DNA from: Diabrotica undecimpunctata
Lineage: Eukaryota; Arthropoda; Insecta; Coleoptera; Chrysomelidae
Assembly (NCBI RefSeq): GCF_040954645.1
Contig: NC_092803.1
Span: 13,951,230-14,015,229, forward strand
Direction: 5' to 3'
DNA length: 64,000 nt
Position 1 is the first letter of the stretch. Each line of letters starts with the position of its first letter. Below the pieces are notes generated by a model. It made no database searches. It worked only from the letters and a program-made list of their open reading frames with translations, and was not told the DNA's origin. This document shows, in pieces, positions 17,991 through 53,528 of this stretch. A program made the position numbers and the translations under genes.

Positions 17991-18104
17991 ATAATAAGAA
18001 AAGTTTAAAAAGTTATTCAACATTTCAACAACATTCAAAACAACAAATACATTGAGATCTATTTTATCTAAACCTAAACCTACAATGAACAAGAAAGAAC
18101 AAAG
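17991..18104 (+). pseudogene. Penelope-like element, reverse transcriptase to GIY-YIG linker
   Basis: From 18031 the plus strand reads TFKTTNTLRSILSKPK, followed by NKKEQRNV. This is the connector found between the reverse transcriptase and the endonuclease of Penelope-like elements (the xxTTNTLxxxL pattern). A one-base frame change separates it from the GIY-YIG frame starting at 18105. Confidence 0.65.
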
Positions 18105-18431
18105 AAATGTATTTATAAAATACCTTGTGAATGCGATCAGTTTTATTTAGGTAAAACATCAAGGCCATTAAATGTTAGAATAAATGAACATCAATCTTAT
18201 ATTAAAAATAGAAAATTTGATAGATTTCAAATATGTAAAGACACATGGAAAAATGAACCTAGGGTTCAATGGAACTATTGTAAAAAGAGAAAAATCAAAG
18301 AAGCGGCTCTAATTATGCTAAATGGGACCAATTGTGTCGCAAATTCTTCAACAGAATGTAGTAGAATCTGGTTACCCATATTAAAAGAGGAAGTTAATAA
18401 AAGGAAAATACCATTTTTAGTAAGTCAGTAA
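18105..18431 (+). pseudogene. Penelope-like GIY-YIG endonuclease domain
   Basis: An open frame of 108 codons without its own start reads CIYKIPCECDQFYLGKT, where YKI and YLG correspond to the GIY and YIG elements and the Cys pair fits the metal-binding insert of Penelope endonucleases. It continues through SRPLNVRINEHQ, with the catalytic-type Arg, to EAALIMLNGTNCVANS and IWLPILKEEV, ending at TAA 18429-18431. The domain nicks target DNA for insertion in this retroelement group. The frame break upstream and the missing reverse transcriptase core make it a relic. A second RTE copy sits 47 bp beyond the stop. Confidence 0.85.
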
Positions 18432-24321: not shown

Positions 24322-26640
24322 TAATTACGGCTGTCGCCGCTTCTCCGCCCCCAATTTCCATCTTTTTCTGTCATATGCAGTTGCCTCTTCTAAGTCTCTT
24401 GCCGCCATTGCTTCATCAATATCGTTGCGCCAACTTCTCCGTGGTCGTCCTCTCTTTTTTCTTTCAGGAGGGATCCATTCCAGTACTCTCCTAGGCCATC
24501 TGTACTCTTGCATTCTTTTAACATGTCCGAACCAGATTAATTGTTTTCTTTCTATGTCATCATTGATATTTCTCTCCATTTTCATTTCGTTTCTTATTTG
24601 TCCGTTTCTAACTCTCTCCAGTTTTGATCTACCGCAGCTTCGTCTCAGATAATCCATTTCTGTCGTAATAAGTTTGTTTCTATAAGCTTTGGTGACGTCC
24701 CATACTTCCGAACCGTAAAGTGTAATACTTTGGACTATACTACCGTAAATGTGTTTTTTGGTTTCTCGTCGAATTGTTTTTTGCCAGAGAAGAGAGTTTA
24801 AGGCACGGGTCGCTGCTCTGCCCTTGTTTATTCTTTCCCTGATTTCATCTGCGCTATTTCCCTTCTTGTTGAAAATGACCCCCAAATATTTGCAGGATTG
24901 CACGCCTTTGATTTTGTCGTCTTCCAAGACTATTCACATTTTGTCATATTCATGTCTAGACCTGCCACCTCATATTCTTCTTGCAGTTTTCTTACCATAA
25001 CTAAGATCGTAGCTGTCTTCGACAATTACTACCTGGTCATCCGCAAAGAAAAGTGTATATAGTTTGTTTTCTTCCACCGTTATTCCCATGTTTCTACATT
25101 TTTTAACCCATTTCACTAAGGATCTGTCCAAATAGATTTTAAATAAGATGGGTGACAGAGAGTAGCCTTGTCTTAGTCCCTTTGTTGTTTGAAAAGGAGA
25201 GGTGATTTCTTGTCCCATTTTAATTCTTGCAAAGTTTTGTTCGTAATATTTTTGAGTGGCGTTAATAAGAATTGGGTTTATTTTCAAGTTACCCATTTCT
25301 ATCCATAGTTGGGAGATCGGTACACTGTCATATGCTTTTTCCAAATCTATTAAAGCTATATGAGTTTCTCTATTTCTCTGCACTCGTTTTTGCATTGCAA
25401 TTTTTAATGTGAAAATATTATCCATAGTGGAGCGTCCGGCCCTAAATCCCGCTTGTTCTTCGAGTTGTTTGTCTTTAATATCATTTTCTATCAGGTTTCG
25501 TAGTACTTTTGAGTATAGTCGGCCTATAGTAGCAATCACTGCGATCCCTCTATAGTTTTTAGGATCCATCTTTGTGCCTTTCTTGTGTATTGGAGAGATA
25601 TACGATTGTCTCCATTCCTCTGGAACTTCTTCTCCGTTTAAGCATCTTTCGAATAATTTTCGGATCATCTCAAACAGTTTTGATGATCCATACCCAATCA
25701 ACTCTGGATGTATTCCGCCGGGGCCTGGAGATTTTTTAAATTTCATTCCCTTAACTGCTTCTTTCACTTGTTCTATTGATATTTCGATTCTTCCTTCTAC
25801 TTCCACTTGTTTATTTGTCTGTTTAAATCTTTCTCTTCTCTCTGTTAATAAGTTCTCAAAATGCTATACCCATGTGTTCTCTGGTATTCTATTTATTATG
25901 ACTTGGTTTTTTGTCGTTGTTCTCATCGTTTTTATAGTTCTCCAGGCTTCAGAGCTCTTTGTCTCTATATGGTTGTCTAGGTATTGGCATTTTTGTTCCC
26001 ATGCACTATTTTTCTTTTTAACCACTTCTCGTTTGACTTCTTTATTCAAGTTTTTATATTGTTGTTTTGTATGTTCGTCTCCCTGTTATAATAACTTTAG
26101 ATATACTTCCTTCTTTCTTTTTATCTTTTGTTCCACTTCTTTATCCCACCAATATGGTTTATCTACTCTCCGTACCTGTGGCCCTAAGGCTTCTAGCGCT
26201 GCGTCTTTCATGCAGTTTTTTATATGTTCGTATTCATCCGTCGTTGATCTGTGTGATTCCTGTAGTTTTTGTGTTAGTCTCCAGGAGTAAAGTAAATGTG
26301 TGCTCTCGTTATATAGATTATCTAAGGTGTACGTAGTTCTTTCTATTTTTTCTCTGTGTTCTTTGTTGATGTCTGTGTGGTTCCTGTCTACGAATGGTGT
26401 ATATATTTTTCCTATTATCAGGCAGTGGTCCGAGCCGCACTCTGCTCCTCTATTCACCTTTACGTCCTGTACTCTTAACTTAGTTTGTTGTCTTGTTATG
26501 AAATAATCTATTATCGATTTTAGTCCTCTTGTGTGCTGATACCAGGTGTATTTGTGTATGTTCTCGTGGGCGAAAAAACCATTCAAAATCTTTAACTCAT
26601 ATTGTTGGCATATATTTATGAGTAACTGTTAACAACTGAC
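24322..26640 (-). pseudogene. LINE with endonuclease and reverse transcriptase, clade unassigned
   Basis: On the minus strand, reading right to left, an endonuclease C-terminal half comes first (26586-26086), with YTWYQHTRGLKSIIDYFI and GSDHCLIIGK. A linker (YWWDKEVEQKIKRKKEVY) follows. The reverse transcriptase (25806-24970) shows SPGPGGIHPELI, NYRGIAVIATIGRLYSK, EQAGFRAGRSTMDNIF, HIALIDLEKAYDSVP with catalytic Asp, KGLRQGYSLSPILFKIY and LFFADDQVVI with the FADD box. In another frame comes a C-terminal domain (24927-24325): YLGVIFNKKGNS, LYGSEVWDVT, IWFGHVKRM and KKRGRPRRSW. Stops between the parts, near 25830 and 24950, break it. The related LINEs at 34225-36300, 37479-40265 and 41262-42520 share this style. 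Confidence 0.85.
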
Positions 26641-27700: not shown

Positions 27701-29335
27701 TCTTCTAGAGGCCTCCTATATTTTTTGCCTCCACCCTTGCTCGTCTGTGGCTGATCTTCCCTATACACGGACTCCTAAAAGGGCTTATGCGTCGCTGTTT
27801 ACTGTGTCTTCCCAGTGTTTTCTTGGCTTTCCAACCGGTCTCTTTCCCTGCATTCTAGCAGTTAGTGCTCTTTCTGGTAGCCTATCCTCTCCCATTCATA
27901 TCACATGTCCGGCACATTGTAATCTTTGTATTCTAATGAAGTGGTGCTTCCTTATAGAGTTGATAAAGCTCGTTGTTGTATTGACTTCTGAAGATTCAGT
28001 TTTCCCTCACAGGTCGTAGTATTCTCCTCAATGCTTTCCTTTCGAATGTCTCGAGTATGTTTTTGGATGTTTCTTTCAGGACCCATGCATCACTGCCATA
28101 ACATGCTATTGGTCGAATTAAGGTTTTATAGATTCTTATCTTTGTATTTCGGTGGACATTTTTAGACCGAAATATATGGGAGAGGGCAAAATAAGCTCCG
28201 TTTGTGTGCATCGTTCTCATCGGTATTTCTCCATCTTGTGATCCTTTAGCATATATTTCTACTCCCAAGTATGTAAACTTTCCAACGGTTTCAATGTCAT
28301 CTTTATGTATAATGTTTTGTAGGACTACATTTCTTCTCGTCTGTATCATTATTTTTGTTTTTTCTGTGTTAATTTCCATACCTAGCTTTTTTGTTTGCGT
28401 TTTATACTCTGCGTATGTTTCCTGTGCTCCTGTTGATGTTCTATTGATAATATTAATATCATCAGCATACACGACCAGTTGAACCGTTTGGTTGGTCAGT
28501 AGGTTTCCTCGTCCACTTTGCATTTGCCTAACCGCATAATCCAGTGTCAGGTTAAACAAAGTTGGGGCCAGCCCATCTCCCTGCTTTAGTCCCTTAGAAA
28601 TGTTGAAAAAGTTTGTCCGGTGGTTTTGTATTCGTACACATGCCTGAGTTTCATCCATTGTGGCTTTAATGAGTCTAATTAGCTTGTGTTTTATTGCGAA
28701 TTCAATGAATATATTGTAGAGTTTTTTTCTATTTACTGAGTCGTATGTCTGTTTGAAATCTACAAACACGTGAACATCTGATACTCTCGTATCTGAAGCC
28801 CGTCTGATACTCTCCAATAATATTTTCTGCTAGTGGTTGGAGCCGCTAGTTTATAATATACGTGAGGACTTTATATGCTTTACATAGTAGAGAAATTTCA
28901 CGGTAGTTTTTGCACTTTAGTTTGTCTCCTTTTTTATATATCGAGTATACTATACTTTTCTTCCAGTCGGTGGGTATTTTCTCTTCTTGCCATATGTCTT
29001 TGATGAGCGCGTGGATGTGATTTGCTAGGTGGTAGCCACCTACCTTATACAATTCTGCTGGTATTTCCTCAACTCCCGGGGCTTTATTGTTTTTCTAGGC
29101 CTTAATAGCTTCGAGAAATTTCTCTATGCTTGGAGCTTCTACACCAGTCTCTAGTTCATTCTCTTCTACGTAGTTTGTACCCATTTTATCTTCCATGTCT
29201 ACTTGTGTATCAAGTAGGGTCTGAAAATAATGCTTCCAGGTTTCTGTGACCTTCAGTTGATCACTGATCATTTGCCCACTTTTATCTTTATATAGACTGG
29301 TTTGAAGTTTATACCCACTTTTTATCATTTTTAGG
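27700..29335 (-). pseudogene. LINE reverse transcriptase copy (second family), minus strand
   Basis: Right to left: a linker (29328-29095) with MISDQLKVTETWKHYFQ, then reverse transcriptase blocks in 29052-28846 (WKKSIVYSIYKKGDKLKC, NYREISLLCKAYKVL) and 28817-27996 (VFVDFKQTYDSVN with catalytic Asp, KGLKQGDGLAPTLFNLTL, VVYADDINII with YADD, YLGVEIYAKGSQ, RIYKTLIRPIACYGSDAW). The C-terminal segment to about 27700 holds RIQRLQCAGHVIRM and GKPRKHWED. Three frame breaks make it a pseudogene, although the central 273 codons are open. It lies head to head with a related LINE on the plus strand starting near 29500. Confidence 0.85.
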
Positions 29336-43405: not shown

Positions 43406-43549
43406 TTAAATGTCTAGCGATTGACACTTTGTAGCAGTCAATTTGAAGGTTGACACGTTGTATCCTCGGATTGATATTAAATTCTGATCTAGTAAGTTAT
43501 TAATTTTTTTGCCATGACGAAAGTTTTTGGTCATGTTTTTATACAATAT

Positions 43550-43832
43550 TGTAGCGAGATTAAATAAAACGAGCGGTTCGAAATTATATACATACATTTA
43601 TTTATAACTTTACAGTTCGGTAGTATCTTAACAACTAACTCTACTTCTAACATTGTTACCTATATATACTACAGTTACTAGGTTCGAGAATATTCTGGCG
43701 TTGTCCCACCTCTAATTCGCCTACGTGACCGGTTATTCTCTCTCGCACTCGATACGCCTCGAAGTTTCGAGAAGAGTATTAGAGATGCAATGCAACCGTT
43801 ACCTGGGCCATGCCGAGAGCATGTTCGTAACA
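43550..43832 (-). repeat. 3' LTR of the Gypsy element
   Basis: In minus-strand sense it starts TGTTACGAACATGC and ends CTCGCTACA, the TG...CA boundary. It contains a TATA-type promoter (agtatatatagg near 43660-43671) and an AATAAA signal (near 43600). The part 43725-43832 repeats at 44591-44698 with one mismatch. The adjoining polypurine tract AAGAGGGGAGCAG (43845-43833, minus) identifies it as the 3' copy. Confidence 0.9.
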
Positions 43833-43845
43833 CTGCTCCCCTCTT
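43833..43845 (-). other. Polypurine tract
   Basis: Minus-strand AAGAGGGGAGCAG immediately precedes the 3' LTR and overlaps the end of the pol frame; it primes plus-strand cDNA synthesis in LTR retrotransposons. Confidence 0.85.
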
Positions 43846-44590
43846 AAATCTGATCGTCCCGATCAGCAACTCTATATGTAGGCACACGATGGCGGAATCT
43901 ACAGGACTCTCCAGCTCTGCATGAACCCTTTAGAAAGAAATAACAGTCTACTGACTTTGAAGGATACGATCTCATCGGGTTAATGCAACACATAGTAATT
44001 CGTACGCCGGTTTCTCGGAAGATTACTTCAAGCATGCTTCTGACAATCTTCCAGTCCAGATTATCTAGTGCATGGTCTATCTTGGGTAAGGCCAAATTCT
44101 TGATGTCGTAATTGCACACAATTTTCTTCAAATTAGTTAGAGCACGCCATATATCCTCGTAGCTTGCCCTGTCTGTATAAGACTTCCTGGTCACCATATA
44201 CAGCAAAGATCGGGAACCATCTTCTAATCTCAGTACTCTTCCAACTTTAGGCTGCTGGTTTTTTAACTCGTCCAAACGACCGAATTTCTTATAAAATACG
44301 GATGAGATTCCTTTAGTCATCTTAAGATCTTGGGCAACACAGTGGGCTAGAGAGACGTTATGCGGAACACTAAAAAGATCCTGCTGAACTTCTGTGGTCA
44401 CGCCGAATCTAGCACTCTTTCTCTCTGCGGAATTTGACATAAATTCATTAAAGCTTGGTCGCCGGTCATCTTTGATCTCATGTTGAAGGGTTCGTGCTTC
44501 TCCTGTTTCATTTGAGCCAGCATATGGTGCAAGACGATTTATGTGAACTACTTTTGGTTTACCTTTCGGCAACTTCTTAATTCGGTATAT
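43844..44590 (-). CDS. Gypsy pol C-terminus fused to TARG1/OARD1-like macrodomain and CCCH zinc finger
   Basis: The open frame (counted from a GTG at 44614 inside the LTR; there is no ATG) has three parts. Residues 10-33 (YRIKKLPKGKPKVVHINRL) are the end of the integrase C-terminal domain. Residues 77-210 match TARG1/OARD1-type macrodomains: DLFSVPHNVSLAHCV, KGISSVFYKKFG, NQQPKVGRVLRL, YMVTRKSYTDRASYED, ALPKIDHALDNLDW. Such domains bind ADP-ribose and can remove it from proteins. Residues 224-242 form a C-x7-C-x5-C-x3-H zinc finger, usually RNA-binding. The Asp of the family (human Asp125) is present as D184. The position of the catalytic Lys (human Lys84) is Arg143 with Lys next to it, and the glycine loop reads DHALD. 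The frame is intact to TAA at 43844-43846, next to the polypurine tract. Confidence 0.85.
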   Translation of the reverse strand: MYRIKKLPKGKPKVVHINRLAPYAGSNETGEARTLQHEIKDDRRPSFNEFMSNSAERKSARFGVTTEVQQDLFSVPHNVSLAHCVAQDLKMTKGISSVFYKKFGRLDELKNQQPKVGRVLRLEDGSRSLLYMVTRKSYTDRASYEDIWRALTNLKKIVCNYDIKNLALPKIDHALDNLDWKIVRSMLEVIFRETGVRITMCCINPMRSYPSKSVDCYFFLKGSCRAGESCRFRHRVPTYRVADRDDQI

Positions 44591-44698
44591 GTGACCGGTT
44601 ATTCTCTCTCGCACTCGATACGCCTCGAAGCTTCGAGAAGAGTATTAGAGATGCAATGCAACCGTTACCTGGGCCATGCCGAGAGCATGTTCGTAACA
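44591..44698 (-). repeat. Truncated 5' LTR of the Gypsy element
   Basis: The first 108 bp of the LTR (minus sense) are joined directly to pol sequence. At the joint, CGAATTA occurs both in the complete LTR and in the pol sequence, a possible microhomology. The LTR TATA box and polyadenylation signal are absent from this copy. Confidence 0.9.
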
Positions 44699-44702
44699 AT
44701 AT

Positions 44703-50799: not shown

Positions 50800-51590
50800 C
50801 CTATTTGCGATGAATAAAACAGTGATGATAATGAATTTTATCAAAATATCTCCAGCGGCAAATAAACTTTTCAGTCTTATGTAATTCTAAACGCATGATA
50901 GCGGTAGTAATATAGTTATAAATGTGACACAAAAGAAGTTGAGGAAGGTGACATACAAGAAAATAAATGAATTAAAAGTAACACTAAATCAAAAATACAT
51001 AGATAATTTTTAAATTAAGATATTTATATGACTTAAGAATAGTTATATATAAATAATAAATATGTATAAATAAAATTAATTTTTATATGTTATTAAAGAA
51101 TACGAGGTAAATTAACATCTAGTTAACTTCTTTAGCGGTAAATGACTCCACCGGATGGCTAAAGACTTGCAGCAGCTGTGTTATGATTAAATTCACGTAG
51201 AAAATCCCATTCCTTACGCAATCTTTGTTTTGCTGCGGCCTAGACGTGTACACAGCCAATTCAGTTAACGAACTCTATACAGAAATAACTAGTTCCAGCT
51301 AGCAGTGGCTAGCATTCCACTCTCTGGTGCTGACGAACGGAATGAGTCGACTGTTTGAAGATTTGTTGACAAGGAAACCAATAAATCAAGATCGTAAAAA
51401 TTCGGTGTTTTATGATACTTAATTATTATTGAGACGAGATAAGTATATTGAATATTCTTTTGTTCAGGCGGTTATAAAACTACTTGAAAAGAATAATTGT
51501 TTAAGTTTGTTTTCACAAACATTAAACATTTGGTTGAACACAATAAAATTATTTATATGCACTATAAAATGATATATAGAATTTTCCATA
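50800..51590. other. No recognisable gene
   Basis: AT-rich with a more balanced stretch (51120-51370). No coding feature is supported. Confidence 0.5.
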
Positions 51591-51604
51591 TAAAAATGAG
51601 TGCA

Positions 51605-53528
51605 TTCGAAAGAAGAACGAATGGATGTCTGATGAGATAATGGATATGATGGATGAAAGACGTAAATTCAAGAATAAAAATGAAGAAAAATACCAGCAGA
51701 TCCACAAAATCATAAGAACGAAAATTCGAGAAGCCAAAGAAAAATGGTTTTCCAACGAATGCAGGGAAATAGAACAATACGAACGAAAATACGACAGTTA
51801 CAATATGCACAAAAAAATAAAATCAATGACAAACAAGAGGAAATTCAATAAGTCACCCAACAGCATAAAAGATGGCGATGGAAATCTTATCTCGGAGCCA
51901 TCAACGATCTTAGAAACATGGAAATCATACATAGAAAAATTATTTGCATCTGACAGGACTGATGATCACCTATATGGAGAAGGAGAAACAGGACCTTCAA
52001 TCCTTAAATCGGAGATAGAAGATGCCATTGCAGCACTAAAAAACAATAAGTCAGCAGGTCCGGACAATGTACCCTGCGAAATATTAAAGATCCTATGTAA
52101 ATCGGACAAACAGTTCCTTGATAATCTAGTTGAACTTTTTAACAACATATATAATAGCGGTAAAATCCCGGAGAACTGGCTGCAGTCAACATTTATTACA
52201 ATCCCGAAGAAACCAAAGGCCCAGATCTGTGATGACTACCGGCTTATAAGCTTGATTAATCATGTCACTAAAGCGTTCACTAAGATCATTCATAGAAGAA
52301 TATATGATAAATGTGAGTCAAATATTGATAGATCGCAGTTTGGCTTTCGGAAAGCGCTTGGAACTAGAGAAGCAATTTTCGCTCTCCAGGTGCTTATACA
52401 GCGGTGTAGAGACGTTGATAAGGACGTGTATTTGTGCTTTGTGGATTTTAGAAAAGCATTTGACAATGTCAATCATGAACAATTGATAGATATTCTGCGA
52501 AAGACAGGTATTGACGACAAGGACATTCGAATTGTGGCAAACCTATACTGGGGTCAAACAGCAAGAGCAAAAATTGGCAACGAACTCACTAAAAGTGTGC
52601 AGATCAAAAGAGGTGTCCGTCAGGGTTGTATATTATCCCCACTCCTATTCAATATTTATTCCGAAGAAATATTTAATAAATGTATGGAAAATGCAAATGA
52701 GGGCATAAAAATAAACGGCGAGTTAACAAACAATATAAGATATGCCGACGACACGGTGATCCTTGCCAGTACCATAGACGAATTACAGCAGGTAATGGAA
52801 AGAGTTTATTTAGTTAGTGAGGAATACGGCCTGAGCCTCAACTTCAAGAAGACAAAGTGGATGCTGATAAGCAGGAAGCAACAGCCTGCTCGACAGTTAC
52901 GGATAAGTAACATACTAATTGACCATGTAGAATCTTATGTGTACCTTGGCACCAACGTAAATGTAAAATGGGAACAGGCCACAGAAATTAAGGCGAGAAT
53001 AGAACGAGCTAGAGCAGCATTTAGCAATATGAAAAAGCTCCTCATAAGCAGGGATTTGTCTCTTCCCCTAAAACTACGACTAGTTAAATGCTACATTTTT
53101 CCGATCTTACTGTATGGTGTGGAGGCCTGGACGCTGACGGAGACGCTCACGAGAAAACTAGAAGCATTCGAAATGTGGGTGTACCGACGCATTCTTCGTA
53201 TATCCTGGACCGAACATGTCACCAACACAGAGGTAATCCAAAGAATCGGAAAGGAGAAAGAAATCGTGAATACAATTAAACAAAGAAAGCTTGAATATCT
53301 AGGCCACATATTGAGACACGATAAGTACCGTCTACTGCAATTGATTGTCCAGGGAAAAATAGACAGTAAGCGAGGGCCAGGCAGGAGAAGACACTCGTGG
53401 CTCCAAAATCTGAGGAAGTGGTTCGGGCTCACATCGGTCGAACTATTCAGAAGCGCCGCAAATAAGATCAGAATTGCCATGTTAATAGCCAACGTTCGCA
53501 ACGGACAGGGCACTTGAAGAAGAAGAAG
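51605..53528 (+). mobile_element. Young RTE/BovB-like LINE insertion, 5'-truncated, 13-bp target duplication
   Basis: The flanks aaaaatgagtgca at 51592-51604 and 53529-53541 are identical. The element starts abruptly inside the endonuclease-reverse transcriptase linker and ends in a gaagaagaag tail. All of the downstream coding region is uninterrupted. Loss of the 5' part is the normal result of incomplete target-primed reverse transcription. Confidence 0.93.
51625..53517 (+). CDS. RTE-like reverse transcriptase, 630 open codons (endonuclease missing)
   Basis: The frame is open from the truncation point; the first Met (51625) is not the native start. Residues 1-100 are the linker (MSDEIMDMMDERRKF). 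From about residue 130 come the reverse transcriptase blocks: NNKSAGPDNVPCEIL, DDYRLISLINHVTKAF, SQFGFRKALGTREAIF, LCFVDFRKAFDNVN (catalytic Asp at 274), RGVRQGCILSPLLFNIY (from 330) and IRYADDTVILAS (YADD from 373). The C-terminal domain has YLGTNVNVKWE, LLYGVEAWTLTE, EAFEMWVYRRILRISW, YLGHILRHDKYRLLQL and RGPGRRRHSWLQNLRKW. All catalytic aspartates are intact. Lacking the endonuclease, the copy cannot transpose by itself. It is the best reference for copies A, B, C, D and the minus-strand fragments. Confidence 0.92.
   Translation: MSDEIMDMMDERRKFKNKNEEKYQQIHKIIRTKIREAKEKWFSNECREIEQYERKYDSYNMHKKIKSMTNKRKFNKSPNSIKDGDGNLISEPSTILETWKSYIEKLFASDRTDDHLYGEGETGPSILKSEIEDAIAALKNNKSAGPDNVPCEILKILCKSDKQFLDNLVELFNNIYNSGKIPENWLQSTFITIPKKPKAQICDDYRLISLINHVTKAFTKIIHRRIYDKCESNIDRSQFGFRKALGTREAIFALQVLIQRCRDVDKDVYLCFVDFRKAFDNVNHEQLIDILRKTGIDDKDIRIVANLYWGQTARAKIGNELTKSVQIKRGVRQGCILSPLLFNIYSEEIFNKCMENANEGIKINGELTNNIRYADDTVILASTIDELQQVMERVYLVSEEYGLSLNFKKTKWMLISRKQQPARQLRISNILIDHVESYVYLGTNVNVKWEQATEIKARIERARAAFSNMKKLLISRDLSLPLKLRLVKCYIFPILLYGVEAWTLTETLTRKLEAFEMWVYRRILRISWTEHVTNTEVIQRIGKEKEIVNTIKQRKLEYLGHILRHDKYRLLQLIVQGKIDSKRGPGRRRHSWLQNLRKWFGLTSVELFRSAANKIRIAMLIANVRNGQGT

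What the first reader, a model, noticed from the sequence alone, without database searches (positions are those of the whole stretch)
43844..44590. Ty3/Gypsy pol carries a TARG1/OARD1-like macrodomain plus a CCCH zinc finger
Seen: one uninterrupted minus-strand frame runs from the integrase C-terminal module (KGKPKVVHINRL) through about 134 residues with the block order of OARD1/TARG1 macrodomains into a C-x7-C-x5-C-x3-H finger, and stops at the polypurine tract. Known: TARG1-type macrodomains bind and hydrolyse ADP-ribose on Asp/Glu, and several RNA viruses use macrodomains against host ADP-ribosylation; CCCH fingers often bind RNA, and the antiviral PARP13/ZAP and related PARPs combine CCCH fingers with ADP-ribose biology. 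Inference: the retrotransposon family may have captured a host gene segment to counter or exploit ADP-ribosylation or RNA surveillance. I know of no described Gypsy element with this architecture, but I cannot search.
Basis: partly seen in the sequence, partly recalled or inferred. Interest (0 to 1): 0.9.

Follow-up and report, generated by a model that had tools for sequence, protein, structure and literature searches.

The report
Beetle Gypsy retrotransposon carrying a macrodomain
A numerous jumping gene of the spotted cucumber beetle carries, on the end of its integrase, a captured protein module of the kind that recognises ADP-ribose tags, and natural selection keeps that module even though its textbook catalytic residue has been replaced.

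The parts
43550..43832 (-). 3' LTR, 283 bp, TGTTAC...CTACA
   Evidence: Self-repeat; found in 3' and 5' positions of other copies; end placed
43546..43549 (.). target-site duplication ATAT, 3' side
   Evidence: sequence; 4-bp duplications in 4 of 4 sister pairs read
44699..44702 (.). target-site duplication ATAT, 5' side
   Evidence: sequence
44588..44698 (-). remaining 5' LTR fragment (first 111 bp), joined directly to integrase sequence
   Evidence: 98% to 43722-43832
43833..43843 (-). polypurine tract GAGGGGAGCAG between stop codon and LTR
   Evidence: sequence
43844..44644 (-). open frame, 266 codons plus stop; only the part below about 44587 is pol, the rest is read from LTR
44525..44587 (-). 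end of integrase C-terminal module (Integrase_p58_C)
   Evidence: Pfam PF22938
44402..44524 (-). linker between integrase and macrodomain
   Evidence: alignments; poorly conserved
43988..44401 (-). TARG1/OARD1-type macrodomain
43889..43945 (-). CCCH zinc finger C-x7-C-x5-C-x3-H
   Evidence: Pfam PF00642 above cut-off; the four ligands conserved in 73, 73, 72 and 73 of 73 copies

Best explanation
Shown: this is the 3' remnant of one copy of a large, recently active Ty3/Gypsy family whose pol ends in integrase - TARG1-type macrodomain - CCCH finger. The macrodomain's predicted fold and most positions of its ADP-ribose pocket are kept and it is under purifying selection, but in Diabrotica it has lost the TARG1 catalytic lysine and the GxG loop. 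Inferred from relatives and a small tree: a Gypsy lineage once took up an animal TARG1-like domain that still had the catalytic signature. Inferred mechanism: in the Diabrotica lineage the domain is a binder, not an eraser. As the last part of integrase it holds the integration complex to ADP-ribosylated chromatin or nucleic acid, the way the chromodomain on chromovirus integrases recognises chromatin marks; the CCCH finger may add RNA or DNA contact.
For: Family trait: 150 of 150 scored copies (of 6749 first-look candidates) cover 248/248 residues at 95-100% identity; 15 of 15 integrase-selected loci have macrodomain and finger. Element context, from pieces of two copies: SAP, capsid, CCHC (second copy only), protease, RT and RNase H (first copy only scanned), integrase. 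Recent activity: 5 of 7 LTR pairs identical over 271-286 aligned bp. Constraint: macrodomain dN/dS 0.161, codon bootstrap 0.094-0.308, in 73 copies; about 0.22 in 13 integrase-selected copies against 0.055 for the upstream integrase piece. Pocket kept: positions D20, L21, F22, H32, C33, G43, I44, T83, P118, D125 invariant in 73 of 73, while 84 is Arg in 72 (Thr in 1) and 123 is Ala in 73. K84A abolishes TARG1 rescue activity (PMC8501950, passages). The position on integrase is that of the chromovirus chromodomain (PMC3605345, passages).
Against: No binding or targeting was measured. Insertion sites show a strict local sequence rule (TA in the middle of the 4-bp duplication in 63 of 63 flanks), which integrase alone may explain. 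Other pocket positions differ from human TARG1 (S35 to Ala in 71 of 73, L47 to Val in 72, Y150 to Cys in 72), so ADP-ribose affinity could be lost too. A lysine follows directly in 62 of 73 copies and might replace K84, though 11 of 73 have no lysine at either position. Two of 73 copies have lost Gly121. The macrodomain might be cleaved from integrase by the element's protease.
Confidence: 0.45

Rival explanations
1. Eraser: the domain removes ADP-ribose that the host puts on the element's proteins, RNA or cDNA, so it is counter-defence. The relatives with Lys84 do this by TARG1 chemistry; Diabrotica copies do it by altered chemistry with Asp125 and the neighbouring lysine.
For: Four of four informative unnamed relatives (P0003, P0004, P0005, P0009) meet the published TARG1 pattern. 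Asp125 is kept in 73 of 73 copies. TARG1 reverses ADP-ribosylation of DNA and RNA ends and thymidine (PMC8501950, passages). ADP-ribosylation of KAP1 by SIRT6 silences L1 (PMC4695847, passages). Models similar to this macrodomain occur among insect-associated viruses, e.g. Kadipiro virus VP8, E 1.2e-16 (whether they are TARG1-class was not tested).
Against: The pattern is met in 0 of 73 Diabrotica copies; K84A kills TARG1 rescue activity; 11 of 73 copies have no lysine at either position; P0002 and P0008 and the integrase-selected copies L121 and L122 also replace Asp125 by Glu, as does P0001 by eye.
Confidence: 0.3
2. Structural spacer: the macrodomain is kept only for folding or stability of pol (for example as the integrase end), with no ADP-ribose role.
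For: Catalytic signature lost; constraint weaker than on integrase, about 0.22 against 0.055; some pocket positions changed.
Against: Adenosine and distal-ribose contact positions 20, 21, 22, 32, 33, 83 and 125 are invariant in 73 of 73 copies, which a spacer does not need.
Confidence: 0.18
3. One-off transduction of a host gene segment into a single copy.
For: None after the genome search; the host does have an OARD1-like open frame (L009).
Against: 150 of 150 scored copies and 15 of 15 integrase-selected loci carry it; relatives at 38-56% identity share the macrodomain.
Confidence: 0.01

Closest known systems
Human TARG1 / OARD1 / C6orf130 macrodomain
   Different: Position of catalytic Lys84 is Arg and GxG is GxA in the Diabrotica family; fused to a retrotransposon integrase
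Chromoviruses (Ty3/Gypsy with an integrase chromodomain)
   Same: A chromatin-type reader module as the last part of integrase (PMC3605345, passages)
   Different: A macrodomain, not a chromodomain; animal host; targeting role not shown
Fish epsilon-like endogenous retroviruses with macro-domain ORFs (Basta et al. 2009, cited in PMC4977317; one passage seen; the original, looked up by a recalled DOI, is not held)
   Same: A macrodomain carried by an LTR retroelement
   Different: Described there as an additional ORF in a retrovirus, not as an integrase fusion in Ty3/Gypsy; macrodomain class and sequence not compared here
Ordinary Ty3/Gypsy elements (general anatomy recalled)
   Same: Gag, protease, RT, RNase H, integrase order, short duplications, LTRs
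   Different: C-terminal macrodomain and CCCH finger. A SAP domain at the Gag start is also present; how usual that is was not checked

Membership tests
Ty3/Gypsy LTR retrotransposon | Gag-protease-RT-RNase H-integrase order in pol | tested here: met
   Pfam on pieces of a sister copy, L079-L081; the second copy, L082-L084, was scanned for Gag, protease and integrase parts only. The window copy itself has lost all of this
Ty3/Gypsy LTR retrotransposon | LTRs, polypurine tract and short target-site duplication | tested here: met
Ty3/Gypsy LTR retrotransposon | RT phylogeny within a named Gypsy clade | not tested
   no RT tree was built
TARG1/OARD1 macrodomain | Sequence and fold closest to TARG1 among macrodomains | tested here: met
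   the best-ranked solved structures are TARG1
TARG1/OARD1 macrodomain | Catalytic pattern TKx(30,35)Px[IL]GxGxD (PMC6397177, passage) | tested here: not met
   0 of 73 Diabrotica copies, nor P0002 or P0008; met in P0003, P0004, P0005, P0009, host L009 and human
TARG1/OARD1 macrodomain | ADP-ribosylhydrolase activity | not testable with these tools
   needs an enzyme assay
CCCH zinc finger | C-x7/8-C-x5-C-x3-H and Pfam zf-CCCH score above cut-off | tested here: met
   22.9 bits against 20.5; ligands conserved; not modelled with confidence
Chromovirus | Chromodomain at the integrase C-terminus | tested here: not met
   no chromodomain family among Pfam matches of the window frame (E up to 1) or of the integrase pieces (E up to 0.01)

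The most novel reading that the evidence does not exclude
A retrotransposon integrase uses a captured, catalytically retired TARG1 macrodomain as an ADP-ribose reader that steers or anchors integration to ADP-ribosylated chromatin (for example PARP-marked breaks), an ADP-ribose counterpart of the chromovirus chromodomain.
Probability: 0.3. Interest if true: 0.88.

Novelty: new variant of a known kind. Interest (0 to 1): 0.76.

Why it matters
It ties ADP-ribose biology to LTR retrotransposition in an element with many near-identical copies and identical LTR pairs, so the question can be tested with one purified domain. Relatives with and without the catalytic lysine give a natural comparison between eraser and reader. 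It also warns that some beetle genes named OARD1-like in databases are likely pieces of this transposon.

Tried and rejected
One-off transduction: rejected. Relatives in viral contigs: scans with one protein and with an alignment found none. Wider search with P0006 residues 332-424: 1 hit, itself, among 13 candidates. No genome-contig scan was completed (one search stopped). Named hosts beyond Diabrotica could not be shown: P0003 to P0007 and P0009 come without organism names. Tree: the 9 retro macrodomain rows form one side of a branch (89/93), next to the host OARD1-like L009 (91/92), but with 15 rows and only two animal non-retro sequences, so capture from an arthropod gene is a lead, not shown. 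Literature: ten searches used. Those on this question gave no paper on a macrodomain in Ty3/Gypsy, judging by listings and by passages in PMC4695847 and PMC4977317; the other listed papers were not opened for this. The library lacks most subscription papers and all preprints. Copy number: the 6749 first-look candidates are not confirmed copies; only 150 were scored. dN/dS figures are pairwise counts over related copies, not independent events, and most of the 73 copies were chosen by similarity to the window copy. A recount found that searches had counted one copy twice (L015 and L070 are the same place); one search repeats the counts on 73 distinct copies and the report gives those. It also showed that dN/dS of the CCCH tail (0.27-1.21) and of integrase end plus linker (0.23-1.54) cannot be told from neutral.

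Full report
WHAT IS IN THE WINDOW. On the minus strand the frame 43844-44644 is open for 266 codons. Pfam finds the Integrase p58 C-terminal module and a CCCH finger above cut-off; the general Macro model gives only 13.3 bits against a cut-off of 22. A sequence search of solved structures shows why: the middle part is the TARG1/OARD1/C6orf130 branch, E 2.5e-27 over residues 83-219. The stop codon is followed by an 11-base purine-rich tract and an LTR of 283 bp (43550-43832). Bases 44588-44698 are a 98% copy of the first 111 bp of that LTR. The copy therefore runs: ATAT duplication, 5' LTR fragment, end of integrase, macrodomain, CCCH, polypurine tract, LTR, ATAT duplication. It is an internally deleted remnant, and the first 18 or so codons of the frame are LTR, not pol. 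When the inner part was lost cannot be told.

WHOSE GENOME. P0002, an 'OARD1-like' protein of Diabrotica undecimpunctata, lies on a contig of 145,884,717 bases, exactly the length of contig C8 of the window's assembly. The assembly has 1.743 Gb. PMC8982398 gives 1.56-1.64 Gb and 2.26-2.59 Gb for two Diabrotica groups (abstract, cut short); that the smaller range is the fucata group with D. undecimpunctata follows from passages.

A FAMILY TRAIT. With the window frame as query, 150 candidates of 6749 were scored and all 150 match 1-248 of 248 at 95-100% identity; 2 of 150 have an internal stop; many lie in open frames of exactly 1414 residues and others in frames up to 1857. With P0003 as query, 126 of 7650 candidates were scored and all match integrase end and macrodomain in one piece at 51-54% identity. 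To avoid choosing copies by the domain itself, I took the top 15 loci found with P0007, an integrase protein without the domain (131 of 18328 candidates scored): 15 of 15 have the macrodomain (one, L124, in two frames) and 15 of 15 the finger. These are top-ranked loci, not a random sample.

THE ELEMENT. Pieces of one sister copy show, in order, a SAP domain, Gag capsid, aspartic protease, RT, RNase H, and integrase H2C2, core and C-terminal modules; no CCHC knuckle reached E 0.01 there. A second copy, scanned only in part, shows SAP, capsid, a CCHC knuckle, protease and the integrase modules. In the first copy Gag and pol share one frame; in the second Gag ends in a TAG that overlaps a different pol frame. 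Five of seven LTR pairs examined are identical over 271-286 aligned bp; one 5' LTR was not found; one pair differs mainly by gaps (85%, 2 mismatches). Duplications are 4 bp in 4 of 4 pairs read; 63 of 63 3' flanks have TA at duplication positions 2-3, ATAT in 33.

OTHER SOURCES. The protein searches gave Diabrotica virgifera P0008 (537 residues, integrase-macrodomain-CCCH, 86%), P0009 (1319 residues, RT-RNase H-integrase-macrodomain, 41% over 73% of the region), P0003, P0004 and P0006 (integrase part plus macrodomain, P0006 ending inside it) and P0005 (macrodomain and CCCH only). Identities to a sister copy are 38-56% for the five unnamed ones. P0004 and P0009 lack a CCCH finger; P0005 has it whole; P0003 has its start only. 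The finger is thus variable, the macrodomain common to these hits, which were found with it. In a 15-row tree the retro macrodomains are one side of a branch (89/93) with the host OARD1-like L009 next (91/92); sampling of host genes is too thin to name the donor.

SELECTION. In 73 distinct copies (79 BLAST rows; 3 dropped for gaps or partial cover, 2 because they are short overlaps of other pieces, 1 because it repeats another) mean pairwise dN/dS, with a 95% codon bootstrap, is 0.161 (0.094-0.308) for the macrodomain, 0.511 (0.230-1.542) for integrase end plus linker and 0.566 (0.266-1.211) for the CCCH tail; 5 of 73 have internal stops. Only the macrodomain figure is clearly below 1. Among macrodomain variants shared by at least five copies, 3 are nonsynonymous and 10 synonymous, where the site ratio over the 248 codons is 3.5 to 1. 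Less shared variants are closer to neutral (42 nonsynonymous, 31 synonymous and 2 stops among singletons; 15 and 14 among those in 2-4 copies). In 13 of the 15 integrase-selected copies (two dropped for gaps) the ratios are about 0.22 for the macrodomain, 0.055 for the upstream integrase piece and 0.47 for the CCCH tail; the linker has dN 0.032 and dS 0.007 on few sites. Decay after insertion pushes such ratios up, so the constraint on active copies is likely stronger.

ACTIVE SITE. In TARG1 Lys84 is the nucleophile and Asp125 resolves the intermediate; the published pattern is TKx(30,35)Px[IL]GxGxD (PMC6397177, passages). K84A cannot rescue from DNA ADP-ribosylation (PMC8501950, passages). 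The pattern is met by human, by the host open frame L009 and by P0003, P0004, P0005 and P0009, and not by P0001, P0002 or P0008; P0006 is truncated before it and uninformative. It is met by 0 of 73 Diabrotica copies. Positions 84-85 are Arg-Lys in 62, Arg-Arg in 10 and Thr-Arg in 1; position 123 is Ala in 73; Asp125 is kept in 73 of 73 but is Glu in P0001, P0002, P0008, L121 and L122. Positions 20, 21, 22, 32, 33, 43, 44, 83 and 118 are invariant in the 73 copies; positions 35, 47 and 150 differ from human in nearly all. So the domain looks able to bind but not to act by TARG1 chemistry in this lineage. That is an inference from sequence.

MECHANISM. Reader on integrase (0.45), eraser as counter-defence (0.3), spacer (0.18). 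The eraser reading is strongest for the relatives that keep Lys84 and may describe the ancestral state.

NOVELTY. Macrodomain ORFs are on record for fish epsilon-like endogenous retroviruses (PMC4977317 citing Basta et al. 2009; one passage seen), so a macrodomain in an LTR retroelement is not new. An integrase-fused TARG1 macrodomain with a CCCH finger in Ty3/Gypsy was not found. I rate it a new variant of a known kind.

Noticed in passing
L009 (G000:C3:100934209-100934598 and around): Probable host OARD1-like gene: 760-codon open frame with a macrodomain that keeps the TARG1 catalytic pattern, a long N-terminal part that looks low-complexity by eye, and more sequence after it; no Pfam match at E 0.1.
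   Followed up: partly
P0001 and P0002 (database proteins): Diabrotica proteins named 'ADP-ribose glycohydrolase OARD1-like' are 78% and 82% identical to the window frame and start in its linker; they look like transposon pieces annotated as genes.
   Followed up: partly
L079-L081 and L082-L084: Two Gag-pol frame organisations occur: one continuous frame, and a Gag ending in TAG that overlaps a separate pol frame.
   Followed up: partly
L079:1720-2499 and L082:1215-2000: SAP domain above Pfam cut-off at the start of Gag in both copies scanned.
   Followed up: no
3' flanks of 63 copies: Strict insertion-site rule: 4-bp duplication with TA in the middle in 63 of 63 (ATAT 33, GTAT 10, ATAC 6, others 14).
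   Followed up: partly
LTRs of the family: In 33 loci the window LTR aligns only from about base 111 on, against 42 where it aligns from the start, while the coding ends are mostly 97-99% identical to the window copy; exchanged U3 regions are possible.
   Followed up: no
window 51580-53514 (+): Uninterrupted 645-codon reverse transcriptase frame, non-LTR type by eye (RVT_1, E 3.5e-39); further RVT_1 fragments at 24973-25863 (-) and 27999-28829 (-).
   Followed up: no
window 18078-18428 (+): Frame that by eye resembles a GIY-YIG nuclease; no Pfam match at E 0.001.
   Followed up: no
Foldseek viral library: Macrodomain-fold models appear in insect-associated viruses, such as Kadipiro virus VP8 (32% identity), thrips virga-like and flavi-like viruses and invertebrate iridescent viruses; their macrodomain class was not tested.
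   Followed up: no
13 integrase-selected copies, linker between integrase and macrodomain: dN 0.032 exceeds dS 0.007 (36 codons, few changes), so relaxed or changing selection is possible.
   Followed up: no
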